This document shows, piece by piece, positions 25,523 to 40,734 of a stretch of DNA of 64,000 nt. This stretch comes from a virus. Location: the IMG/VR virus record IMGVR_UViG_3300035703_000025, positions 61,472-125,471 of that record. One strand, 5' to 3'. Position numbers and translations under genes: made by a program. Below the pieces are notes generated by a model, which made no database searches, was not told where the DNA came from, and saw only the letters and a program-made list of their open reading frames with translations. The number at the start of each line of letters is the position of its first letter. Position 1 is the first letter of the stretch.

Positions 25523-25529
25523 TATAAAA

Positions 25530-27074
25530 TTAACTTATTTCTGTTAAAGACTCTACTGACCATCCACTTCCGGTTCCTCTTATGGTAAACTCATATTTGC
25601 CGTCCTTTCTAATTTTTGATTTGTGTTTTGCGTATGCATTTGGGAAAATAACGATTCTTATGCTGCCACTTGAGTCAGTAATGTTTATTTGACACATTTC
25701 CTGGCCAGGATTTTCACCCTTCTTCGTGACTGTAAACGTTGTGTCTACAATTGATGCAATAACCCTTTTTGTGATACCTTTGTTGTTTCGCAGCATCCTG
25801 TGGCAATCCTTGCATGTAAAGTCAGCTATATCTTTGTACTCGTCTACTGCGCTGCAAGTCATTGCAATAGACAAAAGTTCTTGTTCACTAGAGGCCTTCC
25901 AGTCAGTTGTGTCCTTTGCGTTTTCATCTATTGCATCAGCCTCAGATTTGACTATTGGCTTTCTCTTTTTAGTACTAATAGTCTCAGAACACTCAATCAT
26001 TTTTTGCTTAATTAATGATACCGAGTTGTTCGGTTCATTTTTACAAATTTCGTCCACAACGTACTTAACCTCTCTTGGTGTTAGTTCGTTCATGGCACCA
26101 ACGACATCAAGCATTGTTTTTCTTCCAATTCCGTACAAATCACAAGCCCCACTTTTTATTAGGGATTCTACACCAAGAGATCGCAAAGAATCATTTTCCC
26201 TATAGGCAAGGTTTATGAATTCAGAAAAGTGCTTTGGTCTATTCGTCTTTATTGTTTCCCAGTCCTTCTCTCCAAACTGCTTGATGTGGCTAAGACCAAA
26301 TATAATACTCTTTGAGTTATTATCGTTGACAATTTTAAAGTCTTTTGACGACTCCGTGATTGTTGGTGGAAGTATTTTTATACCGCAAAGCTTTGCCTCG
26401 TTAATCATATCGTGAAGCTCTTCTCTTGATTTTTGTCTAGCCTTGGAGTATGTTAGGTATGTGCAATAAAACTCATGCGGAAAGTTCGCCTTCATATACG
26501 CAGTTCTGTAAGACCACACTGCATATTTTTTCGCGTGAGCATCATTAAAGGCGTATCTTCCAGCGCTTTCAATCATTGAAAACAGCTGCTCTGCCAAGTC
26601 CTTTGACTTTCCATTTTTTACACAACCAGAAACAAACTTTTCACGAAGATCACTGATTACTTTATAATCCTTCTTTCCAATGCCCTTTCTTAGCTTGTCA
26701 ACAATAACTAGACGGTCAATATAAGGCATTTCCTTCCATGCGATCTCACCACCAAACTTCATTAGCTGTTCCTGGTAAATGAGAACGCCGCTTGTTGGTT
26801 GCAGAATGCGGTCAACGTCCTCGTCACCAAACTTGTGGGCAACATCTAGACCGTTCTTTACTCTCGCGTATTTTTCAGTCATTCCAGACTCAAGACACGC
26901 CGGTCTAATAAGTGCAAGAACCGCGCTAAGTTCATTTATGTTTTTAGGCTTTATCTTGGAGGCCCACTGCTTTCCAAGCTCGCTTTCGAGTTGAAAAACA
27001 CCGCCAGTGTTTCCACTTTGAATTAAGCGCCATGTTTTGTCGTTTTTAAAATTTACTTCTTCGATGTTGAACAT
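25530..27074 (-). CDS. DNA polymerase III alpha, C-terminal half (split gene)
   Basis: 514 residues corresponding to the part of bacterial Pol III alpha after the palm. It opens with NDKTWRLIQSGNTGGVFQLES (~10-30), continues through the fingers (LALIRPACLESGM, SGVLIYQEQLM, YAFNDAHAKKYAVWSYRTAYMKANFPHEFY) and helix-hairpin-helix region, and ends with an OB domain (~435-514). It lacks PHP, PDxDxD and KFDxLG elements, which are on a separate gene at 37404-39287. No intein C-terminal motif precedes residue 1. The two chains must associate to make an active enzyme. Located 3 nt after the proofreading exonuclease gene. Confidence 0.92.
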   Translation of the reverse strand: MFNIEEVNFKNDKTWRLIQSGNTGGVFQLESELGKQWASKIKPKNINELSAVLALIRPACLESGMTEKYARVKNGLDVAHKFGDEDVDRILQPTSGVLIYQEQLMKFGGEIAWKEMPYIDRLVIVDKLRKGIGKKDYKVISDLREKFVSGCVKNGKSKDLAEQLFSMIESAGRYAFNDAHAKKYAVWSYRTAYMKANFPHEFYCTYLTYSKARQKSREELHDMINEAKLCGIKILPPTITESSKDFKIVNDNNSKSIIFGLSHIKQFGEKDWETIKTNRPKHFSEFINLAYRENDSLRSLGVESLIKSGACDLYGIGRKTMLDVVGAMNELTPREVKYVVDEICKNEPNNSVSLIKQKMIECSETISTKKRKPIVKSEADAIDENAKDTTDWKASSEQELLSIAMTCSAVDEYKDIADFTCKDCHRMLRNNKGITKRVIASIVDTTFTVTKKGENPGQEMCQINITDSSGSIRIVIFPNAYAKHKSKIRKDGKYEFTIRGTGSGWSVESLTEIS

Positions 27075-27077
27075 ACT

Positions 27078-27716
27078 TTACTCAGCTGTTATCTTGATCT
27101 TAGGACGTATCTTAAAGTTCATAAACGACATATACCGTTTAAACATTTCCGCCGTAATCTTCACGTCCTCAAGCGCGTCGTGAGTCTCAGATGTCCTTTT
27201 CATACCAAGTAAACCAGCGTAAGTGTCTAGTCTGTTATTTTTAAGGTTATCCCTGCCAAAAATAGAAAACATCATGGGCATCATATCGAGTTTTATGTTT
27301 GACCACGGGCAATCATTTTTGCCATTAATTATCTTGTATTTGCGCATCCAGTATTCAACAAATCTATCGTCAAAATTACAATTGTTATAGCCAACAATTA
27401 TGGGATATTCCCATGGATTTTCAGAAGGGTTTGATATAGAGAGATACTCTTTAAACTTTCTAAGAGCTGTCTTTGGGTGCATTCCATCGGTTTGCGCTTT
27501 TGTCCAAAGATCTTGGCCAATTACTTGTATTGCTTTAGCGTCAGCCTTTTCAGGACTTTGTGGTTGAACGGTAATGCAAAATTCGGGAATTGTTTTTGAT
27601 ATTTCGTAATCCGAGTAATTAAGTGTTACTGCAGCTATTTGAACTATCTCGGCACCGTTTTCATAATCTAGACCAGTGGTTTCAATATCGTAAACAACGA
27701 AATTCCTCTTGTTCAT
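27078..27716 (-). CDS. DnaQ-like 3'-5' exonuclease (proofreading)
   Basis: 212 residues of the DEDDh superfamily: Exo I VVYDIETTGL with D10 and E12, Exo II around NNCNFDDRFVEYW, and Exo III THDALEDVKITAEMF near the C-terminus with the catalytic His and Asp. It probably serves as the epsilon-like proofreader of the split polymerase since it is immediately upstream of the C-terminal half. Start ATG lies exactly 11 nt from the first T of TACAAT and has no ribosome site. Confidence 0.92.
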   Translation of the reverse strand: MNKRNFVVYDIETTGLDYENGAEIVQIAAVTLNYSDYEISKTIPEFCITVQPQSPEKADAKAIQVIGQDLWTKAQTDGMHPKTALRKFKEYLSISNPSENPWEYPIIVGYNNCNFDDRFVEYWMRKYKIINGKNDCPWSNIKLDMMPMMFSIFGRDNLKNNRLDTYAGLLGMKRTSETHDALEDVKITAEMFKRYMSFMNFKIRPKIKITAE

Positions 27717-27721
27717 GTAGG

Positions 27722-27727
27722 ATTGTA
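27722..27727 (-). promoter_or_regulatory. TACAAT box, leaderless-type, for the exonuclease/polymerase unit
   Basis: The first T of TACAAT is 11 nt from the A of the ATG at 27716 and no Shine-Dalgarno sequence intervenes. It lies back to back with the box at 27734-27744 in a 31-nt divergent intergenic space. Confidence 0.45.
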
Positions 27728-27733
27728 GTGTTC

Positions 27734-27744
27734 GTGTATTTAAT
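27734..27744 (+). promoter_or_regulatory. GTGTATTTAAT box, leaderless-type
   Basis: The first T of TATTTA is exactly 11 nt before the ATG at 27748. No ribosome site. It drives the divergent late unit opposite the exonuclease gene. Confidence 0.5.
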
Positions 27745-27747
27745 TTT

Positions 27748-28410
27748 ATGGATCAAATGCGATTGGGCATAATAAAACACATTAACGCGGCAGCTGAGAG
27801 CTTTCCTGCCCGTTTTGACGAACCAAATGTGCCTATAGACGCAACACCAACACACTCTTTGTCAGCCCCATCAAAGTTTGATTTATGGATGTCAAGTATA
27901 CTTGATTCAATAATCCGAAGATTTGGCGGTATAAATAACGCGATAATTTATTTTTTAGTAAACAGGCTTGGATTTACGCAACAATTGGCTGAAATGCTTG
28001 TTGTGCATCTTACGCTTGTTGAAAACATCTTGTGGGATCTGTCTGTATGGTTTTATTTGGGAAGACAAACAGATGTAGTCTCAGAGATTGTCAGGTCAAT
28101 AATATGGAGTTTTGTAAATGCTCTTAATCTTCCACTTGGGTCTGACGCAGAGCAGCTTGTTGCAAGAGTCGCAATTTCTATACAAGATGGCCTAACAGAA
28201 AACTTATGGACACCAACTGTTGTTGGAGAGGTTTGTGCTGCTTTACAACGAGGATGGACTTTGCAGCAGATACTAAGCTGGATGCAGCATCTAAGCCGTG
28301 GTGGTACTTACTATCACTGGCCTGACACGTGGTCTGAAGCTGAACTAGAAATACGGGAAAGAGAAGAAGAAGACAGAGAAAACAGCGAGGCTGGGCTAGA
28401 AAATGAGTAA
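27748..28410 (+). CDS. Late protein with N-terminal basic tag, hydrophobic helices
   Basis: 220 residues. The N-terminal segment MRLGIIKHINAAAESF (from the second Met, codon 4) resembles the basic amphipathic tag of other late proteins here. Hydrophobic helices at ~65-115 (NAIIYFLVNRLGF, LVEN ILWDLSVWFYLG) could contact membrane, and the C-terminus is very acidic. No family is recognised. It overlaps the next, Cys-rich gene by 8 nt. Whether translation starts at the first or the fourth codon is open. Confidence 0.55.
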   Translation: MDQMRLGIIKHINAAAESFPARFDEPNVPIDATPTHSLSAPSKFDLWMSSILDSIIRRFGGINNAIIYFLVNRLGFTQQLAEMLVVHLTLVENILWDLSVWFYLGRQTDVVSEIVRSIIWSFVNALNLPLGSDAEQLVARVAISIQDGLTENLWTPTVVGEVCAALQRGWTLQQILSWMQHLSRGGTYYHWPDTWSEAELEIREREEEDRENSEAGLENE

Positions 28411-28960
28411 ACTAGAAAGATTAATCAAAAAACACATTACGTTGTTTGCGCGTCAAGAAACGCAAATTGCGCCAGGCTCACAATCGCCAACTAGTCTTTC
28501 ATGCAACTGCTGCATAGAAGGCACAGATCAACTAAGCATAACTAAAATATGCGAAGCGGTCAAGCAGCTGTCTAGCTCTGTTGGAAGCCCTGGATCTAAT
28601 CAGTGCGCAAAAGACATTAAGAGAAATAATACTAAGCCGTGTTCGACAAATAAGTTTACTAAGGGTAATGTAATAATTGACAAATGCAAGCTTTATGCTG
28701 GGTCTGTAGTAGCCGCTTTGCCAGCAAGCTCAACAGAGCAGCAAAAATCAGAAGCGTCAAGAAAAGCAGAGTGTGATTGTTTAAATAATGCCATTTACGG
28801 CTCGCCAGACATAAACGGCTTGGGTTTTCCAGGAGCGATAATGGGTCAGCAGGTTTTGGATTTTTATAGAGATGGCTGCTCTTATACTTGGATTAGTACC
28901 GTGTGTGGAGAGAGACAAAAGGTTATCGATAGAAAAGGCTTACAGCATCTTATGTGCTGA
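28403..28960 (+). CDS. Cys-rich late protein with N-terminal basic tag
   Basis: 185 residues: a basic amphipathic helix (KLERLIKKHITLFARQ), then a Pro/Ser linker, then a domain with about 11 Cys, including CNCC, CDC and DKC, ending in LMC. Similar in plan to the Cys-rich protein that closes the tail operon (17073) but not clearly homologous. The high Cys content suggests a disulfide-stabilised virion component or a metal binder. Function unknown. Confidence 0.55.
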   Translation: MSKLERLIKKHITLFARQETQIAPGSQSPTSLSCNCCIEGTDQLSITKICEAVKQLSSSVGSPGSNQCAKDIKRNNTKPCSTNKFTKGNVIIDKCKLYAGSVVAALPASSTEQQKSEASRKAECDCLNNAIYGSPDINGLGFPGAIMGQQVLDFYRDGCSYTWISTVCGERQKVIDRKGLQHLMC

Positions 28961-29588
28961 TGTGTGAAAAAGCAGCCTCTATTTCTTTTGGTACACAATT
29001 AAACCGCCCCTTTAGGGACGGTTTTACTTTATTTATAATCGATCTTTTCCTCTCGAAGGAGTCGCCAATCCATTTACCAGTATTACAAAGAACCCAGTAT
29101 TTGTAAAGCGTTATCGCGGCGGATCTTTTGTAAGCCTCAACGTTTATCGGTAGCCCAAATTTTCTTATAGTTTTAACGGCTCGCCTTTCGCAGTCAAGCT
29201 CGCAGGCAATAGTTTTTTTAGTGTAGACACGGCGTAACCGCTTGTTGTAGTTTGCTTCGCCGTTTTCAAGAAGGGAAAGCTTGTAAGTTGCGTCCTCACC
29301 GCCTTTAAGAAACGTGTTCGTGTAAGCCGGAGATCGCTCTATCCATTGCATCATGTGGCAGTACTCGTGCACAAGAAACCCAAGCCATTCGTGAAGCGGC
29401 CTGTCGCCCCTGGCAACCACTATGGTTTTTTCGTTATCAGAATCTAAAAAGTATCCACAGCAAAGGGTGTTACCAGCAGGCTCCCTGACGTTGTTGCTAT
29501 TTTTTATTTTTACAACTACTCCGTGCTCTTTTGCCACAGCCTTAACGTGAGCGATAAAATCTTTAACCCTGCTTTCATTGCTCCCCAT
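28950..29588 (-). CDS. Putative zinc metallopeptidase (HExxH)
   Basis: 212 residues with the zinc-peptidase helix LVHEYCHMMQW: H74, E75, H78. A downstream ACELDCERRA helix (~128-136) offers E130 or E134 as the third metal ligand, as in gluzincin/SprT-like folds. No signal peptide, so it acts in the cell or is carried in the virion. It is transcribed alone, divergently from the tail fibre gene, from a leaderless-type late box. Possible roles are prohead or tail protein processing, or attack on a host protein. Confidence 0.7.
   Translation of the reverse strand: MGSNESRVKDFIAHVKAVAKEHGVVVKIKNSNNVREPAGNTLCCGYFLDSDNEKTIVVARGDRPLHEWLGFLVHEYCHMMQWIERSPAYTNTFLKGGEDATYKLSLLENGEANYNKRLRRVYTKKTIACELDCERRAVKTIRKFGLPINVEAYKRSAAITLYKYWVLCNTGKWIGDSFERKRSIINKVKPSLKGRFNCVPKEIEAAFSHIST
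29001..29025 (+). terminator. Rho-independent terminator
   Basis: aaaccgcccc-ttta-gggacggttt folds into a stem with one mismatch and a 4-nt loop, followed by a short T-run. It lies 40 nt past the + strand unit and inside the 3' coding end of the convergent metallopeptidase gene. Confidence 0.55.
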
Positions 29589-29591
29589 ATG

Positions 29592-29602
29592 CTATAATAC
29601 AC
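29592..29602 (-). promoter_or_regulatory. GTGTATTATAG box, leaderless-type
   Basis: The first T of TATTAT is exactly 11 nt from the A of the ATG at 29588; only CAT separates box and start. Confidence 0.5.
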
Positions 29603-29646
29603 TTAGACGGATCTTGTAGATCTGTAAAGTGCCCAGCGGTAATTTC

Positions 29647-29659
29647 GTGTATATTTAAT
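29647..29659 (+). promoter_or_regulatory. GTGTATATTTAAT box, leaderless-type
   Basis: TATTTA begins 11 nt before the ATG at 29663 (the GTG part is shifted by 2 nt compared with the other boxes). No ribosome site. Forms a divergent pair with 29592-29602. Confidence 0.5.
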
Positions 29660-29662
29660 GTA

Positions 29663-31777
29663 ATGCCAAGAATAAAGACAAAAAACTCCACAACATCTAC
29701 GTCAACGCCAGCAAGCGGATCTTTGCTGCAGGGAGAGCTTGCGGTAAACATAACAGACAAAAGACTTTTTGTTGGTAACGCGTCAGGAAATCCAGTAGAA
29801 ATCACAAATCAGGGTGTTACCGCTGTATACGGTTCAACAAGCGGTATTTACGTTACACAAGCAACTGGTTCCACAACAATAGGGCTTGATCCAGACGTTT
29901 ACGTAAGCGGATCGATGCACGTAAGTGGCGTTTTGACTAGTAACATAGGGGCGCTTAATCTTTTTGCGTCAGAGGATCCGACAACTGGGTGGAGCCATTG
30001 GATAACAGCACAATCGTACAATGGGTCATATTCACAGATAGCTGGAAACGACGTTGGTGATTTAATTTTCAGAACACAGTCAAACATTTTTGGGATTGAG
30101 CCTACTGGTGCTCTAGCTGTTACGCTTGATTCGTTTACTGCAACAACGGGATTTCTGTATCCATCACCACTAGATATTCGAATTGGCAACACTAATTCTA
30201 CAACAACGTTTCCTGGCGATGTAAACATAACAAAAACACTTACTGTTGACCACATCAATGGTGATCTAGACGGTTCTGTTCTAAAGGCGTGCAAGAACAC
30301 CGACTCTATAACTCTGCGAAAAGGCGACCCTGTTTTTATTGCTGGCGTTGTTGGCTCTACTGATGTGATTGAGGTTCAGCTTGCGAGAAGCGACACCTCA
30401 GCAAAAATGCCAGCTGTTGGATTGTTATCTCAGCAATTAACAGCAAACGCAACAGGATACGTAACAGTAATTGGTACACTTGATGATGTTGACACTTCTG
30501 CATTTACCGTTGGTAATAGTGTGTTTGTTGCTTCTACTGGCTGGCTTACTGCTGTAAGACCAACAGGGGCAAGCATTCTTGTGCAAAACATTGGTCGTGT
30601 TGGCCGGGTAAACTCTAACAACGGCCAAATAGTTGTGCTTGGACCAGGCAGAACAAACGATGTTCCAAACAACATTTTAGCTTCTGGAACGCTTACTCTA
30701 GGAACCCCTGACATAATAACTCCGCTTGTTGGTACAGCAAGCGTGTTTAACACAAACGTTTCAAGAGTAAACATAGGAACTTCGGCAAGCGGTATACAAA
30801 TAGGTCACGCGACTGGTGTTGTCACAGTTGGTGACCTCTCTGTTAATGACGGAACTATAACAACAACCGCAGCATCTGTAACTGTATTTAATACAACAGC
30901 CACAACACTTTCAATGGGCGGCGCTGCCACAACAATGACTATTGGCGGCACCACATCAGCAAGCACTTTAAACATTGGAACTGGCGCAAACGGAGCTGGT
31001 GTAACAAAGACAATAAATATAGGAACTGGCGCTTCTGTTGGTTCAGCAACAACAAACATAACGATAGGTCCAAACATAGCGTCTACTGGCACGGTAACAA
31101 TAAACGGTAGAACAAACGTAATAGGACCAAACGCAACAGGAATAACAATTGGTGGTCTGCAACTAGACACAACCGTTGGTAGCAGTACTGGGTTTATAGA
31201 TATTGGAACAAACTCGGTTTTTGGTGGCCACAAGATAATAAACATTGGAACAAACGGAACTTTTGGTAATAGCCAAATAACAATCGGAAATACTCTAGGT
31301 GGGCTTATCCTTAAAGGGTCTTCGGCAAGCGGGGTTATCCTTGATTCAGGACCATTGAGAGCGTTAGGCCAATCAATAATTACAAGCTCTGATGTTAGAG
31401 CAACAGGATCTGTTGTTGGTTGGGGCAGCGTACAATCTACTGGCCACATGCTTGCCGCAAGCGGATACCGCATAACATCAAACGCAATAAACGCACAAAC
31501 CGCAACGGGTTACACACTACAGGCTTCGGATAACGGAAGAGTAATAACTTTTAACAGCGCAGGAAGCCACACGCTGCGAATACCGACTGGCCTTGACGTT
31601 GGATTCAACGCCACAATAATTCAGCTTGGAACTGGACAAGTAACTTGCACTGGTCTTTCAGGAGCAACACTAAACTGCTACGCATCTGGAAACAAGATAA
31701 GCGGACAGTTTGGAGCAGCAAGCGTAATTTGCTACGCAACAGACACATACAATTTGGCAGGAACACTCACAGTATGA
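29663..31777 (+). CDS. Tail fibre / receptor-binding-type protein
   Basis: 704 residues. The N-terminus PASGSLLQGELAVNITDKRLFVGNASG is the standard opening of many phage fibre proteins (G-L--GE-AVN--D--L-V-N--G). The middle and C-terminal parts hold many 'INIGTGA..G..TTINIG' type strands, expected of a beta-helical shaft. It has the composition of a trimeric extracellular fibre: Gly, Thr, Ser and Asn rich. Followed in ATGA overlap by a leucine-rich-repeat protein that may cap or bind it. Confidence 0.85.
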   Translation: MPRIKTKNSTTSTSTPASGSLLQGELAVNITDKRLFVGNASGNPVEITNQGVTAVYGSTSGIYVTQATGSTTIGLDPDVYVSGSMHVSGVLTSNIGALNLFASEDPTTGWSHWITAQSYNGSYSQIAGNDVGDLIFRTQSNIFGIEPTGALAVTLDSFTATTGFLYPSPLDIRIGNTNSTTTFPGDVNITKTLTVDHINGDLDGSVLKACKNTDSITLRKGDPVFIAGVVGSTDVIEVQLARSDTSAKMPAVGLLSQQLTANATGYVTVIGTLDDVDTSAFTVGNSVFVASTGWLTAVRPTGASILVQNIGRVGRVNSNNGQIVVLGPGRTNDVPNNILASGTLTLGTPDIITPLVGTASVFNTNVSRVNIGTSASGIQIGHATGVVTVGDLSVNDGTITTTAASVTVFNTTATTLSMGGAATTMTIGGTTSASTLNIGTGANGAGVTKTINIGTGASVGSATTNITIGPNIASTGTVTINGRTNVIGPNATGITIGGLQLDTTVGSSTGFIDIGTNSVFGGHKIINIGTNGTFGNSQITIGNTLGGLILKGSSASGVILDSGPLRALGQSIITSSDVRATGSVVGWGSVQSTGHMLAASGYRITSNAINAQTATGYTLQASDNGRVITFNSAGSHTLRIPTGLDVGFNATIIQLGTGQVTCTGLSGATLNCYASGNKISGQFGAASVICYATDTYNLAGTLTV

Positions 31778-32673
31778 TTGTTCTACCTAGCGCTAAATAT
31801 TTTTCTTCGGTGCCTAGTGTTGCGGAAATAGCTAGGTTTAAAACTAATAGAAGCACCGCGACTTTTGGCGGTCTTAATTCATTTTATGTTTTTACAACAA
31901 CAGGATACGCTGCAGTAACATGGTGGGATGGCGTTACAACAATTTATGGAAGCGGTAATCCAAATGCTCAAATTTTCATATCAAAATCTGTTGTGGCCCC
32001 GTATAACACAACAGCAGAAAAAGATTTTTCTGTTTATTCTTGTGATGTTACTAGCAAAATAATTGGATACATCACAAATATAACGTTTAATTCAAGTTCA
32101 AGATCACCAATAACTTTTATTGATCATTATTCCTTATCACAATTAAGCATTTTCTTTTGTGATTCTGGCACGGGATTGACATCTTATAGGCACAACGGTA
32201 GAATAAATTCATTGAGTTTATCAAGTACTGGCTTAACAAGTCTTGATCTTAGCAATGGGCAGAGATTATATTCTGTAAATTTACCTAACAACTTGCCGCT
32301 TACTTCAATCACTGGCGTGTCTTCGCTTCAAAATCTAGAAATTTTTAACGCTAATGGTGCTGGAATAACGTCTATTGATTTTTCTGGTTTACAGAGACTA
32401 TACGACATCGACTTAAGAAGTTCTTATTTGACATCAATACGAGCTGTCGGGTGCTCTTTAGTTTCTGATTCTTACTCAACCTCTAGTTTTTTCGTTGGTG
32501 GTGCAAAATTGCAAAACACTGGTTTAAATTCAACAGCTATAAATCAGTTTTTTACAGACCTTGCTAACGGTGACGGGTATATAAACATAGGCTGTGCAAC
32601 AGGTGCTGGATCAGCAGACTCATCAATAGCGACAGCTAAGGGATATACGGTTCTAGGAAACGTGCCGTGTTAA
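31774..32673 (+). CDS. Leucine-rich-repeat protein, fibre-associated
   Basis: 299 residues from the ATG in the ATGA overlap with the fibre gene; an earlier in-frame ATG lies deep inside the fibre gene and is rejected. Residues ~140-226 are LRR-like (INSLSLSSTGLTSLDLSN, LYSVNLPNN, LYDIDLRSSYLTSI). The end, AINQFFTDLANGDGYINIG...IATAKGYTV, is the usual cap of secreted LRR proteins in phages and Bacteroidota. The N-terminal ~120 residues are an unrelated beta domain. Likely a receptor-binding or host-recognition adhesin. Confidence 0.75.
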   Translation: MIVLPSAKYFSSVPSVAEIARFKTNRSTATFGGLNSFYVFTTTGYAAVTWWDGVTTIYGSGNPNAQIFISKSVVAPYNTTAEKDFSVYSCDVTSKIIGYITNITFNSSSRSPITFIDHYSLSQLSIFFCDSGTGLTSYRHNGRINSLSLSSTGLTSLDLSNGQRLYSVNLPNNLPLTSITGVSSLQNLEIFNANGAGITSIDFSGLQRLYDIDLRSSYLTSIRAVGCSLVSDSYSTSSFFVGGAKLQNTGLNSTAINQFFTDLANGDGYINIGCATGAGSADSSIATAKGYTVLGNVPC

Positions 32674-32676
32674 AAA

Positions 32677-33333
32677 ATGATTTACTTTATAACACCAAAT
32701 TATAGTCTAGCGTTTATACCAAAGTCTGGATGCTCAACCTTATCTAGGTGCGTAATAAAAGCCTTTCAGCCAACTGAGGAGTCTTTAATTGAAAATGCGG
32801 ATTTCCCAGAAGGAAAAAACGCAAACAATTCAATGTGGCAAACATATGTACTAAGGGAAAAATATCCATCAAAACCCATACTTGCAATGATACGGGATCC
32901 AGTAGAAAGATTCCGATCTGCAGTTTCTCAATTTAAAACTAATGACGTTGACTCAATTATTAACTCGTTAATTAATAATACCGCCTTTGATTCTGGTGGA
33001 AAGCGTCGAAAGCAAATAATTGCTAGTAAAAATAGACACTTTATGCCGCAGATCCTTTGGGTTGACGTAAACACAAAGCTTTATAAGTTTCCAGAACACA
33101 TAAACGAGGCGGCTGCTGAGATAGGTTTTATACTGCCGCTTCCTCAAATAAACGCAGCGTCTTATCCAAAGCCAACCCTTACGGCCGAGCAGACAGCTGT
33201 TTTGGAGGAGTATTACGCAGAGGATATTGCGCTATTTGAGTCAATTGTTTCTCCTGGAATAATAACAGGGGTGATTTCGGCAAATCCAGTGAGTCTAGTT
33301 CCTCCAGTTATTCCTGATGATGAGGAGCCTTAA
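32677..33333 (+). CDS. P-loop sulfotransferase
   Basis: 218 residues. FIPKSGCSTLSR (residues 14-24) is the 5'-phosphosulfate loop that grips PAPS, and IRDPVERFRSAV (72-83) the 3'-phosphate site with R73 and S81. These two motifs define the sulfotransferase superfamily. The protein is short and lacks the N-terminal membrane helix of Golgi enzymes; it has a Pro-rich C-terminal tail. It lies 3 nt after the LRR gene within the fibre unit, so sulfation of a virion protein, a virion glycan or a host surface sugar is plausible; the acceptor is unknown. Confidence 0.8.
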   Translation: MIYFITPNYSLAFIPKSGCSTLSRCVIKAFQPTEESLIENADFPEGKNANNSMWQTYVLREKYPSKPILAMIRDPVERFRSAVSQFKTNDVDSIINSLINNTAFDSGGKRRKQIIASKNRHFMPQILWVDVNTKLYKFPEHINEAAAEIGFILPLPQINAASYPKPTLTAEQTAVLEEYYAEDIALFESIVSPGIITGVISANPVSLVPPVIPDDEEP

Positions 33334-33338
33334 AATTT

Positions 33339-33350
33339 GTGTATAATAAT
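33339..33350 (+). promoter_or_regulatory. GTGTATAATAAT box, leaderless-type
   Basis: The first T of TATAAT is exactly 11 nt before the ATG at 33353; no ribosome site; it lies in the 19-nt gap after the sulfotransferase gene. Confidence 0.55.
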
Positions 33351-33352
33351 AC

Positions 33353-33634
33353 ATGGGCTTAGCTAATAACAAGATTAAGAGCGCACTGAGAAAATTGCAA
33401 ATAGCAATGGGGACAGAAATAACCTCGTACAAAGGTATAAAGGTTGGCGATCGCGTAAAAGACGTAAATCAGCAGTGCATGCATTACGGCAGCGTAGGGG
33501 TCGTTACTATGATTGAGGCCCTGCCAGAAAACAGCGGATACCTTATTCATTATACCGTAGAAAATGACGGACCTTCGTATGGCCCAGGAACAGTGCTCAA
33601 AAAGACAGAAGATCAATTGGAAAAACTATCATGA
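33353..33634 (+). CDS. Small KOW/SH3-like protein with N-terminal tag
   Basis: 93 residues. After a basic amphipathic N-terminus (NKIKSALRKLQIAMG) comes a beta-barrel-like domain, GIKVGDRVKDVNQQCMHYGSVGVVTMIE, similar to KOW or SH3-type modules. The next gene encodes a second such domain without the tag, so the pair may be related. Overlaps the next gene by 4 nt. Function unknown. Confidence 0.6.
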   Translation: MGLANNKIKSALRKLQIAMGTEITSYKGIKVGDRVKDVNQQCMHYGSVGVVTMIEALPENSGYLIHYTVENDGPSYGPGTVLKKTEDQLEKLS

Positions 33635-33864
33635 ACGAAGAAGAAAACGATTACGATTACACACCACAGCAGCCAGCGGTTGCTAGCATTTCCGAGGGCG
33701 ACATAGTTAGCTGCGGAAACAAGGACTCGGTTAACTTTGGCGTCTGGGGCGAGGTTTTAGAGGTTAACTCAGGAATTGCAACCATTAAAATAATGAATCC
33801 TGAGTTTCCTCGCAACACTGGCTGGACCATAACGGAGAGTGTTGAGGGTCTGGAGAAGTTATGA
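33631..33864 (+). CDS. Small KOW/SH3-like protein
   Basis: 77 residues: acidic N-terminus followed by SEGDIVSCGNKDSVNFGVWGEVLEVNSGIATIKI, the same 'GD-V------GV-G-V--V' outline as the preceding gene. ATGA overlaps on both sides show co-translation. Probably a small virion or nucleic-acid-associated module; not further assignable. Confidence 0.6.
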   Translation: MNEEENDYDYTPQQPAVASISEGDIVSCGNKDSVNFGVWGEVLEVNSGIATIKIMNPEFPRNTGWTITESVEGLEKL

Positions 33865-34250
33865 ACGATTCGGAACTTGACGTAATTTTTGCTTCAGAGA
33901 AAGCCCAGGCAGTTGAGTATCAGGGTAAAAAAGTAACCCTAAATCAACCAAGACGAATAGGTAAGGGCGATCCTGGCTACGGGAAGAAGAAATTCTACGT
34001 TTACGTCAAGAACGATCGCGGAAATGTTGTCCGCGTAATGTTCGGTGATCCAAACATGGAAATACGACGTGACGACCCAAAGAGAAGAAAAAATTACAGA
34101 TCACGTCACGGGTGCAGTAATCCTGGTCCAAAATGGAAGGCTAACTACTGGTCCTGCAAGATGTGGGAAGCTAAGAAGTCTGTTACTGACTACACAAGCA
34201 GCTCAGTAATTTCTTCTTTTATTAAAGCAATAAACGAAGCTTCTATTTAG
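33861..34250 (+). CDS. Conserved phage protein, SCKMW-type domain
   Basis: 129 residues. The core KKKFYVYVKNDRGNVVRVMFG (~43-62) followed by EIRRDDPKRRKNYRSRHGCSNPGPKWKANYWSCKMW (~67-102) is a very well conserved block seen in many phage genomes, often fused to or next to head-maturation and portal genes; its function is not established. Two Cys and the Arg/Lys-rich run suggest nucleic-acid or metal binding. It closes the + unit; its stop overlaps that of the convergent membrane protein gene. Confidence 0.65.
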   Translation: MNDSELDVIFASEKAQAVEYQGKKVTLNQPRRIGKGDPGYGKKKFYVYVKNDRGNVVRVMFGDPNMEIRRDDPKRRKNYRSRHGCSNPGPKWKANYWSCKMWEAKKSVTDYTSSSVISSFIKAINEASI

Positions 34251-35053
34251 GCTTCCATCCCGCCACCAGCATCTTGCGGGGGATCTTGATTTAGCCAAGC
34301 CAATAGGGCCATAAGTATAACTCCAGTAGCGCCAGACGCAATGCCGACTGGAAGGCCAAGGCCGCTAAGTGCAGCAGCTAGACCTAATAACACAGCAGCA
34401 CCAGCGATTACCCAAAGCACAGTTCTATTTGTTTCTGCCCACGCTGCTATTTCTGCCGCAATACTAGGACTTGAGCCTGGCTGATTTAAAGCCCAAAGAT
34501 AAACGGCTGCTACTGTTGCCGCAGAGGTTCCGTAGTTTACTAGCCATCTCAGGGCGTCGTCCTGATTTTTTTGCATAATGTATTTGCCAATCAAGTCCTC
34601 AATGGTTATAGCCATACCGTCTGAGATTCTTCTAAGCTCGGCAACAAACTCTGGATTTTCCAAAACTCCATCTCTGCAGTTTTTAGGTAATGATTGAAAT
34701 ATTTGCCGGAGAGCCTCTGCCGCCGCAGCAAACTCATTTTGGCTAGCCGCTTCATTTAATTTTTTCATCGCTGCGCTTAAAGACTCAAGAACCCCAGCTA
34801 GTCTTCTTTTGCAGAACGGATCAAGGTATTTCCAAAGAGATCTCAATGCCCAAACTAGAATTGGGGCAAGCGAAAGCCCTGTAATCCATTTTTCCCAGGC
34901 AATTTCGGTTTCCTTGTCTGGTTTTTCTGCTGGTTCGCTAACAGGACCTATGTCTTCAAATGTTTGGGTCTGGCCTGGCGCTAAAACAGTATCGCCTCTT
35001 TTTGCTGCGACTTTTGCTATGTAATTAAAAAGCTTTACGTCTTTACTGTTCAT
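34247..35053 (-). CDS. Virion-type membrane protein with N-terminal tag
   Basis: 268 residues: basic amphipathic N-terminus (DVKLFNYIAKVAAKRGD), then linker ending near residue 45, then hydrophobic helices at ~52-70, ~172-190 and two near the C-terminus (~205-225, ~233-255, glycine-rich). Same architecture as the protein encoded just upstream and overlapping by 4 nt. No enzyme motif. The hydrophobic Gly/Ala-rich helices and late promoter suggest a virion protein that enters or crosses the host membrane during DNA entry. Confidence 0.55.
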   Translation of the reverse strand: MNSKDVKLFNYIAKVAAKRGDTVLAPGQTQTFEDIGPVSEPAEKPDKETEIAWEKWITGLSLAPILVWALRSLWKYLDPFCKRRLAGVLESLSAAMKKLNEAASQNEFAAAAEALRQIFQSLPKNCRDGVLENPEFVAELRRISDGMAITIEDLIGKYIMQKNQDDALRWLVNYGTSAATVAAVYLWALNQPGSSPSIAAEIAAWAETNRTVLWVIAGAAVLLGLAAALSGLGLPVGIASGATGVILMALLAWLNQDPPQDAGGGMEA

Positions 35054-36015
35054 GTGGCTGGCAATACTTGTCTAGCTATTTGCTGAATTATTTCATTTAT
35101 TCTCTGAATAGCTGCTGAACTCAAACCAGCGCCAGCAGCAGCAGTAGATATTATCCCGCTAGCTGTGGAGCTAAGCCAAGCAGCAATACCAGCTACAGTA
35201 CCGCCAGCCAGGAAGAACGCGCTAAGACCAATAAGAACGGCGGTTAGAACACCAACAATTACAGTATAACCAACGCCATACTCTTCTACAAAACCCTGAC
35301 TAAGCACTTCTGCTGCTAGAACAAGCGCTGCCTCTCCTGCTCCAGCACCAAATTGATAGACAGCTGCTGCAATCGCAGCACCAAATGCATACAAATCCCC
35401 ATTGTTTAAAAACGAATCCCAGAAACGCTTAATTGATTCAAGTAGCTCTTTTGGTAGATTCGGGAACTTTGATACAAATGTGGCGTACATTAGATCTTTT
35501 ATGAATTTGTCTAGGGTTCCATCAGCAATGCATCTTCTTAATTGCCGCTTAACGTCCTCAATATTTGGATCAGAAGAATAAAGATTGTCTACTGCCCTAT
35601 TTAAAGTGTCTCTGTAGTTTGATGATTGCCATTTTTGCCAAAGCTCTCTAGCCTTCATCAAGGTATCACCAGTAGATGGATTTCCACTTAAGTAGCTTCC
35701 TATGGTGCCACCAAAAACGCCTTGAACCATTCCGTTTAGTAGTTGAAGGAAAGGGCCTTTGAGATATCTACCGAAAAGCTTAAGGCATTCTTTTTTCTTT
35801 CCTAGATATTTTAAAACTTGGTCAACGATCCAACTTAAGCCAGTAAATACTCCCATTCCGCCCAAAATACTGATGGCCCACCAGTCTGATTCGCCAAGAC
35901 CTAAAAAAGAACCACCTTCTTCAGCCTCGCCAGGAACACCAGTGGCCAGTTGAGTCTGGTCTTCTCTTGCTAAAGCAATTTGATTAAGCGTTTTTATAAA
36001 GCGGAAGCTTTCCAT
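35050..36015 (-). CDS. Virion-type membrane protein with N-terminal tag
   Basis: 321 residues with N-terminal FRFIKTLNQIALARED, a short linker TQLATGVPGEAEEGG parallel to TVLAPGQ in the downstream protein, and hydrophobic helices at ~45-65, ~210-240, ~250-275 and ~278-300. The central ~100 residues are polar (NLYSSDPNIEDVKRQLRRCIADG). The pair looks like a diverged duplication or two subunits of one membrane complex. Start has the 11-nt promoter box and no ribosome site. Confidence 0.55.
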   Translation of the reverse strand: MESFRFIKTLNQIALAREDQTQLATGVPGEAEEGGSFLGLGESDWWAISILGGMGVFTGLSWIVDQVLKYLGKKKECLKLFGRYLKGPFLQLLNGMVQGVFGGTIGSYLSGNPSTGDTLMKARELWQKWQSSNYRDTLNRAVDNLYSSDPNIEDVKRQLRRCIADGTLDKFIKDLMYATFVSKFPNLPKELLESIKRFWDSFLNNGDLYAFGAAIAAAVYQFGAGAGEAALVLAAEVLSQGFVEEYGVGYTVIVGVLTAVLIGLSAFFLAGGTVAGIAAWLSSTASGIISTAAAGAGLSSAAIQRINEIIQQIARQVLPAT

Positions 36016-36020
36016 ATAGC

Positions 36021-36029
36021 GTAATACAC
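36021..36029 (-). promoter_or_regulatory. GTGTATTAC box, leaderless-type
   Basis: The first T of TATTAC is exactly 11 nt from the A of the ATG at 36015, with GCTAT between box and start and no ribosome site. Confidence 0.5.
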
Positions 36030-36030
36030 G

Positions 36031-36237
36031 CTAATCTTTTAGTGTGAAAAACTTTTTCTTGTGATGCGCAAGCTTTGCGTACTTTAATACATCAATAACA
36101 CTGTCTATTTCTTCAATAGAAGATAGGAAAACAGAGCTGCTATCAGACTTAAGCTCTATGCTGTATTCCCTTTCAATTATTTCAATTCCGCGAACTTTAT
36201 GACGTGCTTTTACGGTTCCAAAGTTATTGAAATTCAT
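36031..36237 (-). CDS. Small protein, unknown
   Basis: 68 residues from the ATG that follows AGAGAAAAAA (MNFNNFGTVKARHKV); a longer reading adds 13 residues from an upstream ATG deeper inside the preceding gene. A beta-rich N-terminal half and a helical C-terminus ending KKKFFTLKD. Overlaps its upstream neighbour by 14 nt, indicating co-expression. No family recognised. Confidence 0.55.
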   Translation of the reverse strand: MNFNNFGTVKARHKVRGIEIIEREYSIELKSDSSSVFLSSIEEIDSVIDVLKYAKLAHHKKKFFTLKD

Positions 36238-36421
36238 TTTTTTCTCTAGGGTCACAGTTAATCTCAACCCCATCAACCTTTGTAAATGTCTTTGCGTAAT
36301 CTATGGCTCTAGTCCAAAGCTCGTAGTCCATCTCTTTAGTGTATTCGGCAAACTTAAGACCAAATATTATCATGGCCTTTGCAAGCCTTGGGTCCATATC
36401 GCGCATGTCTATATCATCCAT
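36224..36421 (-). CDS. Small acidic protein, unknown
   Basis: 65 residues, helical, Asp/Glu/Met-rich at the start (MDDIDMRDMDPRLAKAMIIFGLKFAEYTKEMDYELWTRA is the visible order in parts). Begins one base after the methyltransferase stop. No motif recognised; compact fit between two genes supports that it is expressed. Confidence 0.5.
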   Translation of the reverse strand: MDDIDMRDMDPRLAKAMIIFGLKFAEYTKEMDYELWTRAIDYAKTFTKVDGVEINCDPREKNEFQ

Positions 36422-36422
36422 T

Positions 36423-37298
36423 TTAATTAAGTATCCATGTTTGAGGTCTATTATTCCATAGACCAGTATTTAATTGCGAATATCCTAAGTCTTTCATCGC
36501 CCTTGAAAAAAAAGAACCCATAGATGTTGATTTTATTTTAACATTGTTTCTTTTGTAAACATCAAAGTGACCAATTGCTTTTGCGGTAAAAGCATTTGCG
36601 ATAATCATTCTTTTTGGTTTAATTGCTTTAAATATCTCGTTAAGATGATCAATTGGGTCTTCGAAGTGCTCAAAATACTCAGAAGCAAACGCAACATCTA
36701 CATTGGTAGCTATATCTGCAGCGCTTTCAACAAGACCGAAATCATATTCATTTGATAAAAAGCTAGCCACCCTCCATTGATCTGATGCTATGATATTTGT
36801 TCCAATCACAGAAGCGTCTGGAAAGGCTTGTTTAAAGGCTGCGCTTGTTATACCAATCCCATTGCCAAGATCAGCTATAATAGAGCCTTTTTTGATCTCA
36901 CCGAAAATTCCTCTAGGTATACAAACTGTGGGAATTGCAATTTCTTTTATGTACTTTCTTGAGTACACTAACCAACAAGCCCAAACCTCACTTAAATACT
37001 CTTTTTTGCTGTATATCTCATACGCGGGACTACCGCTAGATAAGCGATCGTACCAATCTAGCATAAGAAGCTCTAGTTCTTTTGACTTATTTCTTTTGTC
37101 CTTTGGGTTTTTAAGATGATCAATAGTTTGCTTTGCAATTTTTAAAAGATGGTCTGTGTCATCTATGCCAGAGCATTCTAGTATGCTCCTAAAAAACATT
37201 AGACCCTGTGAAGATGTCATATTCCAAAGCTTATAGCTAGGTTTAGAAAAAGAACACGCTCTTGTTTTTCTCTCAATATTGTTTTGAGTGATCTTCAT
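36423..37298 (-). CDS. SAM-dependent methyltransferase (class I)
   Basis: 291 residues. Motif I is IIADLGNGIGITSAAF at ~140-156, followed by VIGTNIIASDQW as the acidic-loop region and VDVAFASEYFEHFEDPIDHLNEIFKAIKP at ~200-230, the usual post-I to motif IV arrangement of class I methyltransferases. The ~135-residue N-terminal domain is unrelated and may bind substrate. AGGA lies 6 nt before the start, downstream of a terminator, so its transcription may depend on read-through. Target unknown. Confidence 0.75.
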   Translation of the reverse strand: MKITQNNIERKTRACSFSKPSYKLWNMTSSQGLMFFRSILECSGIDDTDHLLKIAKQTIDHLKNPKDKRNKSKELELLMLDWYDRLSSGSPAYEIYSKKEYLSEVWACWLVYSRKYIKEIAIPTVCIPRGIFGEIKKGSIIADLGNGIGITSAAFKQAFPDASVIGTNIIASDQWRVASFLSNEYDFGLVESAADIATNVDVAFASEYFEHFEDPIDHLNEIFKAIKPKRMIIANAFTAKAIGHFDVYKRNNVKIKSTSMGSFFSRAMKDLGYSQLNTGLWNNRPQTWILN

Positions 37299-37305
37299 GT
37301 TGTCC

Positions 37306-37342
37306 TTAAAAAGCCCATCAGAACAGTTACGAACTGATGGGC
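37306..37342 (-). terminator. Strong Rho-independent terminator
   Basis: On the minus strand gcccatcag and ctgatgggc form a perfect 9-bp stem with a 12-nt loop (ttcgtaactgtt), directly followed by five T. It ends transcription coming from the polymerase N-terminal half gene. Confidence 0.8.
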
Positions 37343-37389
37343 AACTACGCGTAACTCAGACGGGCCTAAGATGCCCGAATAGCGTAATC
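37306..37389 (-). ncRNA. Candidate small structured RNA
   Basis: A GTGTATATATA promoter-like box (37393-37403) is followed by ~80 nt without an ORF. This stretch holds a 5-bp hairpin with a 7-nt loop (cgggc-atcttag-gcccg), a short palindrome tacgcgta, and the terminator hairpin. Promoter, structured body and terminator in this order make a small independent transcript plausible. A tRNA was considered and rejected. Confidence 0.35.
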
Positions 37390-37392
37390 ACC

Positions 37393-37403
37393 TATATATA
37401 CAC
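37393..37403 (-). promoter_or_regulatory. GTGTATATATA box after the polymerase gene
   Basis: Identical in type to the boxes at late genes but placed directly after a stop codon with no ORF starting 11 nt away. Any transcript would begin near 37389 and meet the terminator at 37308. Confidence 0.4.
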
Positions 37404-39287
37404 TTAATCGTAGTACGAGTAAGAAAACTCCCCAAACTCAACTTCATCAAGTTTAAAATTAACCATGCGTTGTATTTGAAAAACCTTTTCTAGTGCTGTT
37501 ACGCCAAGTATATCAAATTTAACACCGCCTAAATATTCTATGTCAGCGCCTTCTACGTCTATTACCATAGCATCAAGCTTTTCTGAATAAACCATCGGGA
37601 ATAGGTTGCTCAGAGGCTGATCAGCAATAATGATTCCAGCAGCGTGCACACTTTCATTTCTTGGAACCTCTTCTATTCTTAAGGCGTAATCAAAGACCTC
37701 TTTGAACTGTTCGTAGTACTCAGCAATTGACTTAATGTTATCTATATTCCAACGAATAATTCCGTAAGACGGATCTTCTTTTTGCATTTCAACAAGATCA
37801 TCTGAAATCTTCGCTTCTTCAGCAAACTTTTTTGTGATTTGATTTGAAACATCAAAATAATCTGGTGTCGGTTTTAGAAGCTTAAATACTTCTTTTATTG
37901 CGCCACGGCCTTTAAATCTTGAGTGAGTAATAATGTGACCAACACAATCACTTCCGTATTTTTTGCTAATGTACCCAATAAGTGACTCTCTGAAAGATGG
38001 TGGCACATCCATATCGATATCTGGTAAGGAAACGTTTTCTTTTGTGTTTCTGCCTTCATTGTAAAATCTTTCAAATGGAAGTTCTCTCCCTTGGTCATAG
38101 CCAAGTGTTGGGTCTGGTCGCATCGGATCAACGGAAGAAATACCAATGAGATACGAGATCATGCAGCCAGAAGATGAGCCTCTAATGTCTGCTGGAACCC
38201 CCTTTGATCGAAGACTGTTTATGATATCATGAACAATCAAAAAGTAAGCTGACATGCCAGCTTGCTTGAATACCTCAAGCTCGTGCTGTATTCTTTTAAC
38301 GTAAGCTTCCTTTAGGGATGGATCTTGCTTAAACTCTTGAAGAAGACCGGTTGACTTAAAGCCAGACCTGCAAAGTTCGCGCAGATACTCGTGTGGATCA
38401 ACTATTTTGTGGTCTCCAACTTTAAAGCTTGCAAGAATTGGTCGTTCTTGAATTGAGTAGTCTTCAATAAGATCTAAAAGCTTAAGGGTTTTTTCTCCTC
38501 GCTTAAGCTCCTTTGATAGATATCCACGAGACCATCGCTTGTCAAATATGCGAGAATCGTTCATTGCCTCGCAACAAGACCCGCCATCTTCCTTAGCCTT
38601 TGTTAAAAGCTCGTGAAGCTCAATATCTTCCTTATTAAGGTAATGGATATTATGCGAAGGCAGGGCATCTTCAAAAGATTCGCTTATTCTCTTACCAAGA
38701 ACAAGATGGGCTGGAAGAAGGCTGACGTCATAAAACAAGAATACGTTTTCGTATATCTTCTTATAGTTCTCTAGAACTTTTTCAATACGAGACTTCCAAT
38801 CTTTGTGCAGCAGCGTTTCGCACTCATCAGCGGAGTCACTCAAGTAAGCCATTTCGTGGTTTACAAAAGCGCTTGAATAAATTTGGCTCTTAAGATCCCC
38901 AACAAGACAAATAAGACCAGCTTTATATGGATACAGTGACTCTATTTGTGTTCTAGGCATTCCATTAAGTGAAAGGGCCTCCTTTGTCCGGGCCATAGAC
39001 ACAAGTTTAACTATGTTTTTATAGCCTGTTTTATTCTTTGCAAGAAGGGTTATTCGCCCAACAAAATTATCACCACTGTAGGTGTCAAGCTCTACTCCAA
39101 TTATTGGTTTGATGCCAGAGGCTTTGCATTCTTTGAAGAACGGAACAACACCTTTGATATTGTTGTGGTCTGTCATACATATTGCTGGTATGCCGTACTC
39201 TTTGCTCTTTGCAACAAGAGAATCAATTGTTACAACGCTATCAAGAAGTGACCACGCGGTGTGCACATGAACAGGAATATAGCTCAT
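37404..39287 (-). CDS. DNA polymerase III alpha, N-terminal half (split gene)
   Basis: 627 residues. The PHP domain opens the protein (PVHVHTAWSLLDS, then ICMTDHNNIKG). The palm follows with RGSSSGCMISYLIGISSVDP, the catalytic LPDIDMD near ~421-425 and the third-Asp motif VKFDILGVTALEK near ~590, so all three metal-binding aspartates of a C-family polymerase are here. The chain ends in LDEVEFGEFSYSYYD just where the fingers should begin; those are on a separate gene at 25530-27074. No intein N-terminal sequence is present. ATGA overlap with the nuclease gene upstream. Confidence 0.93.
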   Translation of the reverse strand: MSYIPVHVHTAWSLLDSVVTIDSLVAKSKEYGIPAICMTDHNNIKGVVPFFKECKASGIKPIIGVELDTYSGDNFVGRITLLAKNKTGYKNIVKLVSMARTKEALSLNGMPRTQIESLYPYKAGLICLVGDLKSQIYSSAFVNHEMAYLSDSADECETLLHKDWKSRIEKVLENYKKIYENVFLFYDVSLLPAHLVLGKRISESFEDALPSHNIHYLNKEDIELHELLTKAKEDGGSCCEAMNDSRIFDKRWSRGYLSKELKRGEKTLKLLDLIEDYSIQERPILASFKVGDHKIVDPHEYLRELCRSGFKSTGLLQEFKQDPSLKEAYVKRIQHELEVFKQAGMSAYFLIVHDIINSLRSKGVPADIRGSSSGCMISYLIGISSVDPMRPDPTLGYDQGRELPFERFYNEGRNTKENVSLPDIDMDVPPSFRESLIGYISKKYGSDCVGHIITHSRFKGRGAIKEVFKLLKPTPDYFDVSNQITKKFAEEAKISDDLVEMQKEDPSYGIIRWNIDNIKSIAEYYEQFKEVFDYALRIEEVPRNESVHAAGIIIADQPLSNLFPMVYSEKLDAMVIDVEGADIEYLGGVKFDILGVTALEKVFQIQRMVNFKLDEVEFGEFSYSYYD

Positions 39288-40282
39288 TGGTCGTCTTTAA
39301 AAGTGTTTCTTCTGTCAGATGTTTTAAGGGCCTTTTCCTCGGCCTTCGTCTTACGAACCTCTCCGACTCTAAGTATAGTTTTGTCGATTCCGTTAGCAAC
39401 AAGATAGTTGAAAACATTGTCGCATACACTGCAGCCATTTGAGGTTTTTGTCTTTCCGAAATGGCATGTTGTCTTGCATTTCCACGCCTGTGAACCGTTA
39501 ACCTCTTTAATCCTGGTTGGAAGATGATTGCCCTTTATGGTATTGAAGTGGTCTTTGATAATTGACAAAGTCTCTTTTCTTTGTTCGTCATCAAAACATA
39601 CAGTGAATGGCCCGCCATCGTTTACAAAGTGTATCGTCAAGAGTCTAGTCTTGTACTGTGGGTACAGCATCGAAACGGCCAAATCGTACATTCTTAGCTG
39701 TATATCTTTGCTTGCGAAATAATCATATTCTTTAAGCTCACCTGTCTCCCAAGATTTCCTTGAACCTGTTTTCCAATCAATTATCTCTAGGGTGGTGTCA
39801 TCAAGCTTAGTTATTAGATCAATCGTGCCACGGATTTCGTAGTTTCCAGAAGTGGTTTTCTTGCTGAGCACATCGTAATACTCAAAGGTAAAGCCTGGCA
39901 TTGTTAAAGGTATTCTGAATTGACGCTCCGTGTGCAGAACCTTCAGGTTTCTTGGATCGTACTTCGTGCCTAGAACCTTTTCAATAGACTTAAGGCAAAA
40001 CCTTTTATCGGCACCATCAGCCAAATCAATTCTTCCAGCGTTTTCAGCTTTGTAACGCTTCCAGCATATATCTAGCAAAAGCACGTGATCAAGCAGAAGG
40101 CCATCTTTGTGGCCAAGCTTTGTGGCTTTTGCCATTATTTCAAGTACGTGATGCACAATTGTACCAAGAAGGGCCTTTTTCCCAGACCCGCTTGGTATTT
40201 CAAGTATTGAGTCAAGGAAGAACTGAAACTGACAACCCTCGTAGGTTTTTATTGAAGACGCTCTTAAATACTGGATGTTCAT
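39284..40282 (-). CDS. RecB/Cas4-like PD-(D/E)XK nuclease
   Basis: 332 residues. The catalytic core is RGTIDLITKLDDTTLEIIDWKTG (~150-173), i.e. D...EIIDWK of the PD-(D/E)XK family, followed by QLRMYDLAVSML, the conserved QxxxY helix. C17 in YEGCQFQF plus three C-terminal Cys (CKTTCHFGK...CSVCD) give the four-Cys arrangement that binds an iron-sulfur cluster in Cas4/AddB/RecB nucleases. Probably resects DNA ends for phage recombination or degrades host DNA. Overlaps both neighbours by 4 nt. Confidence 0.85.
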   Translation of the reverse strand: MNIQYLRASSIKTYEGCQFQFFLDSILEIPSGSGKKALLGTIVHHVLEIMAKATKLGHKDGLLLDHVLLLDICWKRYKAENAGRIDLADGADKRFCLKSIEKVLGTKYDPRNLKVLHTERQFRIPLTMPGFTFEYYDVLSKKTTSGNYEIRGTIDLITKLDDTTLEIIDWKTGSRKSWETGELKEYDYFASKDIQLRMYDLAVSMLYPQYKTRLLTIHFVNDGGPFTVCFDDEQRKETLSIIKDHFNTIKGNHLPTRIKEVNGSQAWKCKTTCHFGKTKTSNGCSVCDNVFNYLVANGIDKTILRVGEVRKTKAEEKALKTSDRRNTFKDDQ

Positions 40283-40734
40283 TTCGTGGCCTTTTCAATC
40301 TGATCCTCAACCCTTACAATTGGTTGATTAAATATACGTTCTGAGTTTTTAACAACAACAAGAGTGTTTGCTGTTGACTCTATAAAGTCCTGAGTAGATT
40401 TTATCTTTTTAGGCGAGTAGCCTCCACCGTTTTTTACAAACTTCTGCTTAGAAAGCTTAAGAATCTCCTTGTAGACCTTTTGTATTTGTGGTGGCCATCT
40501 TTCTTCTATGCCTTTAAATGGTATGTAAACTATATACGGTATCTCAGTCTCTTGGCAGGCGTATATAAAATCAAGCTCAAATCCTATTGATGCTCTTGAT
40601 ATACAAATAGAACCATCTACTTCTATAGAGCTGAGCTGCGAGATAATTTGATTTCTAACAAATAGCCTGGCTGGATCGTTAAGATCGTATGCTCCATTAA
40701 AATTTACGGCTTCAGCTTTTATACCAATAATCAT
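40279..40734 (-). CDS. SLOG/DUF1273 (YpsA)-like nucleotide-binding protein
   Basis: 151 residues. ASIGFELDFIYACQETEIPYIVYIPFKGIEERWPP (~47-82) matches the SLOG outline 'G-D--AA-----IP-I--IPF--Q---W'. Family members bind nucleotides or ADP-ribose derivatives; several occur in phages and stress systems. No catalytic residue can be certified. Sits between the nuclease and a dNMP kinase, overlapping each by 4 nt. Confidence 0.55.
   Translation of the reverse strand: MIIGIKAEAVNFNGAYDLNDPARLFVRNQIISQLSSIEVDGSICISRASIGFELDFIYACQETEIPYIVYIPFKGIEERWPPQIQKVYKEILKLSKQKFVKNGGGYSPKKIKSTQDFIESTANTLVVVKNSERIFNQPIVRVEDQIEKATK

What the first reader, a model, noticed from the sequence alone, without database searches (positions are those of the whole stretch)
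25530..39287. DNA polymerase III alpha split into two distant genes with no intein
Seen: the N-terminal half (37404-39287) holds PHP, PDIDMD and KFDILG, so all catalytic Asp; the C-terminal half (25530-27074) begins just before GVFQLES and holds fingers and OB domain. They are >10 kb apart, in different transcription units. The junction lies upstream of the FNKSHS-like site where cyanobacterial DnaE is split by an intein, and neither break end has intein N or C motifs. Inference: a heterodimeric replicase joined without splicing, giving separate control of the two halves.
Basis: partly seen in the sequence, partly recalled or inferred. Interest (0 to 1): 0.75.

Follow-up and report, generated by a model that had tools for sequence, protein, structure and literature searches.

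The report
Ancient two-gene phage DNA polymerase
A virus of bacteria makes its main DNA-copying enzyme as two separate proteins instead of one, and more than a hundred related viral sequences share the same break with a proofreading gene between the halves, so the split probably happened once, long ago, and is kept by selection.

Summary
In a 125 kb phage record, DNA polymerase III alpha is encoded as αN (37404-39287, PHP + palm, all catalytic Asp) and αC (25530-27074, fingers + HhH + OB), 10.3 kb apart, with no intein, no Rfam intron, and no other PolA, PolB or Pol III alpha in the record. It is not specific to this phage: of 134 viral loci holding both parts, 131 have separate genes for the halves, and all 131 have a DnaQ-type exonuclease gene between them. 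The split forms one clade whose unsplit sisters (L045, L012) share its gene order: one ancient in-place fission. The 10 kb distance is secondary. Relatives L108 and L114 keep αN-exo-αC within 664 bp; the window lineage later gained tail-fibre and other genes there. Both halves are under strong purifying selection (dN/dS 0.01-0.04), and one nested relative (L092) has palm and fingers fused again. Best reading: a non-covalent αN·αC replicase with a separate proofreader; separate control of the halves is not supported as its reason. A minimal split Pol III alpha of jumbo phages was published in 2021, so this is a new variant of a known kind.

The parts
37404..39287 (-). αN: PHP + palm half of DNA polymerase III alpha, 627 aa; D423, D425, D592 catalytic
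   Evidence: Pfam PHP and DNA_pol3_alpha; residues; model pLDDT 89.4, best PDB matches E. coli alpha 4jom/2hnh
25530..27074 (-). αC: fingers + HhH + OB half, 514 aa
   Evidence: Pfam DNA_pol3_finger, HHH_6; model pLDDT 92.9, best PDB match M. tuberculosis DNA polymerase 7pu7
27078..27716 (-). DnaQ/RNase_T-type 3'-5' exonuclease, 212 aa, ends 3 bases before αC
   Evidence: Pfam RNase_T 6.4e-18; lies between the halves in 131 of 131 loci
37407..37457 (-). C-terminal tail of αN past the palm helix, ...EFGEFSYSYYD; pLDDT below 50
   Evidence: tail kept in L005 and shorter in other relatives; low confidence 618-627
26532..26549 (-). FNDAHA, equivalent of the FNKSHS site where cyanobacterial DnaE is split by an intein; inside αC
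   Evidence: alignment
27748..37298 (.). secondary block between αN and the exonuclease: tail-fibre-like gene (29663-31777), other + strand and - strand genes
   Evidence: absent between the halves in L108/L114 (gap 664 bp); 5-7 kb in L105-L107, L110, L111
25051..25479 (-). SSB, next gene after αC
   Evidence: Pfam SSB 5.5e-30; order kept in many relatives
39284..40282 (-). PD-(D/E)XK nuclease, overlaps the start of αN
   Evidence: Pfam 4e-21; syntenic in split and unsplit relatives
40731..46121 (-). dNMP kinase, primase, DnaB-like helicase, RecA of the same replication block
   Evidence: Pfam; conserved order
23218..24885 (-). glycosyltransferase gene that closes the conserved order after SSB
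   Evidence: Pfam; conserved order

Best explanation
The two genes encode the two halves of one C-family replicative polymerase. αN carries PHP, palm and all catalytic Asp; αC carries fingers, the helix-hairpin-helix part and an OB fold. They are proposed to fold separately and dock non-covalently at the palm/fingers interface to rebuild an alpha subunit, with the neighbouring DnaQ-type exonuclease as proofreader in trans. The split arose once, in place, in the ancestor of a large clade of tailed phages: an intact polymerase gene became αN-exonuclease-αC. The window's 10 kb gap came later, when a block of tail-fibre and other genes entered between αN and the exonuclease. Shown: break site, single clade, shared gene order with unsplit sisters, purifying selection, no other polymerase in the record, no splicing element. 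Inferred: assembly, activity, and the exonuclease's role.
For: Domains and residues of an intact alpha subunit divide cleanly between the halves; both fold with high confidence to their parts of known alpha chains. dN/dS against close relatives is 0.023-0.036 for αN and 0.012-0.027 for αC. 131 loci have both halves with an exonuclease between. The split clade has SH-aLRT 99 with unsplit sisters L045/L012 next (97) (FastTree 1.0 and 0.998 with L045). Sisters and split members share the helicase-primase-dNMPK-PDDEXK-polymerase order. L092, nested in the split clade, has palm and fingers in one ORF. One palm match, no PolA and no PolB in G000; other clade records up to 244 kb also lack a second intact palm gene. 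Four of the usual PHP metal positions are changed in αN (positions from my own knowledge), which fits a separate proofreader.
Against: No experiment shows that the halves bind or polymerise. A complex model could not be run. The record is linear and may be incomplete, so another polymerase cannot be excluded. No obvious clamp-binding motif was seen in αC (not tested systematically).
Confidence: 0.87

Rival explanations
1. The halves are joined after translation or transcription by a split intein or a trans-spliced intron.
For: Cyanobacterial DnaE is joined by a split intein; a group II intron-type gene does interrupt one bacterial dnaE seen here (L225).
Against: Only about 25 residues lie outside the alpha-like parts; no Rfam intron in 25000-40500; each half has its own start and stop, kept in relatives; in 92 loci the gap is under 1 kb and holds an exonuclease.
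Confidence: 0.02
2. The halves are remnants, and the phage uses the host's polymerase.
For: Phages can use host replicases; the host is unknown.
Against: dN/dS 0.01-0.04 in both halves; intact frames and catalytic residues over a clade down to about 30% identity.
Confidence: 0.03
3. The halves work apart: αN as a PHP/palm enzyme, αC as a DNA-binding accessory.
For: They are separate genes, here probably in separate transcription units.
Against: Family C polymerases need palm and fingers together (established knowledge of the family); both halves occur in the longer contigs; re-fusion in L092.
Confidence: 0.05
4. The split exists to give separate control of the halves.
For: In the window lineage opposite-strand genes lie between the halves.
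Against: The commonest and probably ancestral state is one operon with a gap under 1 kb; the distance is a late insertion.
Confidence: 0.05

Closest known systems
Split minimal DNA Pol III alpha of group 2.2 jumbo phages (Viruses 2021, 13:63, PMC7824862)
   Same: Family C catalytic alpha in two standalone proteins from distant phage genes, proposed to reconstitute an enzyme
   Different: That form is minimal, lacks the other Pol III domains and comes beside a family B polymerase; this one keeps PHP, HhH and OB, and no PolA or PolB was found
T4-related phage gp43A/gp43B (Aeromonas phages 25 and 44RR) and Aeh1 NrdA (PMC2988022)
   Same: A phage enzyme split into two polypeptides that reassemble; gp43A/B of phage 25 co-purify and polymerise
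   Different: Family B polymerase or reductase; linked to a homing endonuclease or spacer, not an exonuclease; a few phages rather than a deep clade
Cyanobacterial DnaE split by a trans-splicing intein
   Same: Pol III alpha from two distant genes
   Different: Break site differs (FNKSHS, whose equivalent is inside αC here) and no intein is present
Rossellomorea phage phiT1 two-gene Pol III alpha (PV767480)
   Same: Break at the same linker
   Different: Independent origin: holding it with the split clade is rejected, AU p 0.0005; no exonuclease between
Bacillus phage vB_BauM_KLEB27-3 two-gene Pol III alpha (OM634661)
   Same: Two genes for Pol III alpha
   Different: Break further downstream, with an HNH endonuclease between; lies outside the split clade

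Membership tests
C-family DNA polymerase III alpha (DnaE type) | PHP domain at the N terminus | tested here: met
   PF02811 6.5e-36 in αN; metal site partly degenerate
C-family DNA polymerase III alpha (DnaE type) | palm with three catalytic Asp | tested here: met
   D423, D425, D592; PF07733 2.5e-58
C-family DNA polymerase III alpha (DnaE type) | fingers, HhH and OB domains | tested here: met
   PF17657 and PF14579 above cut-off; OB sub-threshold by Pfam but covered in the fold comparison
C-family DNA polymerase III alpha (DnaE type) | one polypeptide (usual, not strictly required) | tested here: not met
   two genes in the window and in 131 loci in all
C-family DNA polymerase III alpha (DnaE type) | polymerase activity | not testable with these tools
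   needs purified proteins
Split DnaE joined by an intein (cyanobacterial type) | intein N and C parts at the break | tested here: not met
   no room and no motif at either end
Split DnaE joined by an intein (cyanobacterial type) | break at the FNKSHS site | tested here: not met
   FNDAHA is αC residues 176-181
Split minimal Pol III alpha of jumbo phages | only the core catalytic and template-binding parts, beside a PolB | tested here: not met
   PHP, HhH and OB present; no PolB in 12 records
DnaQ-type exonuclease (27078-27716) | RNase_T fold with DEDDh motifs | tested here: met
   PF00929 6.4e-18; DIET, NFDDRF, HDALEDV in the alignment

The most novel reading that the evidence does not exclude
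A three-protein replicase core, αN-exonuclease-αC, in which the proofreader encoded between the halves also helps to hold them together, and in part of the clade a metal-binding CGC...Cys head on αC stands in for the lost covalent linker.
Probability: 0.25. Interest if true: 0.75.

Novelty: new variant of a known kind. Interest (0 to 1): 0.56.

Why it matters
Family C replicases are usually one chain. A deep, broad clade of uncultured phages has kept a two-chain form since one fission, with unsplit sisters, independent splits at the same linker and a natural re-fusion to compare. That makes it possible to test which interface holds a family C polymerase together and what a free proofreader does, and it offers a natural break site for split-polymerase tools. 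It also warns that annotation will report two partial or truncated polymerases in such genomes.

Tried and rejected
Intein or intron joining: rejected by end lengths and an empty Rfam scan. Assembly artefact: rejected, the same break is in many independent metagenome contigs. Pseudogene: rejected by dN/dS. A second polymerase in the record: none found. Common origin with the phiT1 break: rejected. Homing endonuclease as the cause of this break: the gene always in the gap is an exonuclease; LAGLIDADG genes sit at a second break in L102-L104 and L092, and no Rfam intron was found in L102 or L092. Promoter-like matches were no more than chance (27 found, 32.3 expected), so transcription units rest on gene order only. 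Literature searches gave no account of this clade's αN-exo-αC order in the held library; most subscription papers and all bioRxiv preprints are not held.

Full report
What is there. The window is part of a 125,471-base virus record classed as linear. On the minus strand, 37404-39287 encodes αN (627 aa) with PHP and the full DNA_pol3_alpha domain, and 25530-27074 encodes αC (514 aa) with the finger and HhH domains and an OB fold. E. coli alpha residues 6-573 match αN and 590-904 match αC. All three catalytic Asp lie in αN (D423, D425, D592). The break falls in the palm/fingers linker, upstream of the cyanobacterial intein site, whose equivalent FNDAHA is inside αC. AlphaFold2 models built from clade alignments are confident (pLDDT 89.4 and 92.9), and their best solved matches are bacterial DNA polymerase III alpha chains.

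No joining device. Past the alpha-like parts about 17 residues remain on αN and about 8 on αC, far too short for an intein. An Rfam scan of 25000-40500 at E 0.1 is empty. There is one palm match and one fingers match in the record, and no PolA or PolB in it or in 11 related records.

Not confined to this phage. Close relatives (70-100% identity) have the same two genes. Profile searches of viral contigs brought many more at about 30-60% identity. Over all viral loci fetched, 131 hold both halves as separate genes, two hold one ORF (L045, L012) and one (L092) has a PHP-side piece plus a fused palm-fingers ORF; 28 more hold only one half. Three contigs are counted twice among the 131. In all 131 a DnaQ-type exonuclease lies between the halves. 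By contrast, nearly all bacterial dnaE genes fetched by the same kind of search are single; the exception outside what look like misbinned phage contigs is L225, interrupted by a group II intron-type reverse transcriptase gene.

One fission in place. The split sequences form one clade, SH-aLRT 99, with the unsplit L045 and L012 as sisters at 97; FastTree agrees with 1.0 and 0.998 (L045 only). The gene order RecA-helicase-primase-dNMP kinase-PDDEXK-αN-exo-αC-(SSB)-glycosyltransferase recurs across the clade, and L045 and L012 have helicase-primase-kinase-PDDEXK followed by one polymerase gene. The split therefore most likely happened at this locus. The trees are midpoint rooted, so fission rather than fusion rests on the unsplit state of the sisters, of most other phages and of bacteria.

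The distance is secondary. In L108 and L114 (53-58% identity) the halves are 664 bp apart with only the exonuclease between. In L105-L107, L110 and L111 the gap is 5-7 kb, and in the window group 9-10 kb, where the homologous block includes tail-fibre-like genes on the opposite strand.

Function. dN/dS of the window against close relatives is 0.012-0.036 over the two halves. αN of the window lacks several usual PHP metal ligands, which fits proofreading by the separate exonuclease, whose DEDDh motifs are intact. L092 lies well inside the split clade yet has palm and fingers in one ORF: a natural re-fusion, which argues that the halves act as one enzyme. The proposed heterodimer is an inference until the proteins are tested.

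Other observations. In 31 of 57 αC sequences an N-terminal CxC occurs, and a third Cys at the start of the fingers is present in all 31 but in 8% of the rest, which suggests a metal-bound head; the window group lacks it. phiT1 has an independent break at the same linker (AU p 0.0005 against one clade). KLEB27-3, Jayan and Larrie are further splits outside the clade and at other places in the gene.

Known background. A split minimal Pol III alpha in jumbo phages is published (PMC7824862), and the split family B polymerase of a T4-like phage is reported to co-purify and work (PMC2988022). The present case keeps more of the enzyme, has no companion polymerase in the records searched, and marks a large clade. 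I call it a new variant of a known kind.

Noticed in passing
L102-L104 6033-9026, L188, L092 7119-9143: A second break just before the PDID motif, with a free-standing LAGLIDADG endonuclease gene between in L102 and L092; the palm piece has a conserved new N-terminal part of about 90 residues.
   Followed up: partly
L092 9143-11593: Palm and fingers fused in one ORF deep inside the split clade, exonuclease moved downstream.
   Followed up: partly
αC N termini, for example L169 12736-14358: CGC motif plus a third Cys, present together in 31 of 57 sequences; possible metal site made after the split.
   Followed up: partly
L225 1386-7968: Clostridiales dnaE interrupted by a group II intron-type reverse transcriptase/HNH gene right after the KMD palm motif.
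   Followed up: partly
L186, L187, L188: Contigs binned as Lokiarchaeota and Alphaproteobacteria carry this phage polymerase arrangement; probably misbinned phage.
   Followed up: no
window 25530-39287 against L002/L018: dS is 0.29 for αN but 0.07 for αC against the same contig, so the halves may recombine separately.
   Followed up: no
window 60233-62589: Thymidylate synthase-like gene near a match to beta-glucosyl-HMC-alpha-glucosyltransferase; hints at modified DNA bases.
   Followed up: no
window 29663-31777: Tail-fibre-like protein with a weak Mtd_N (major tropism determinant) match.
   Followed up: no
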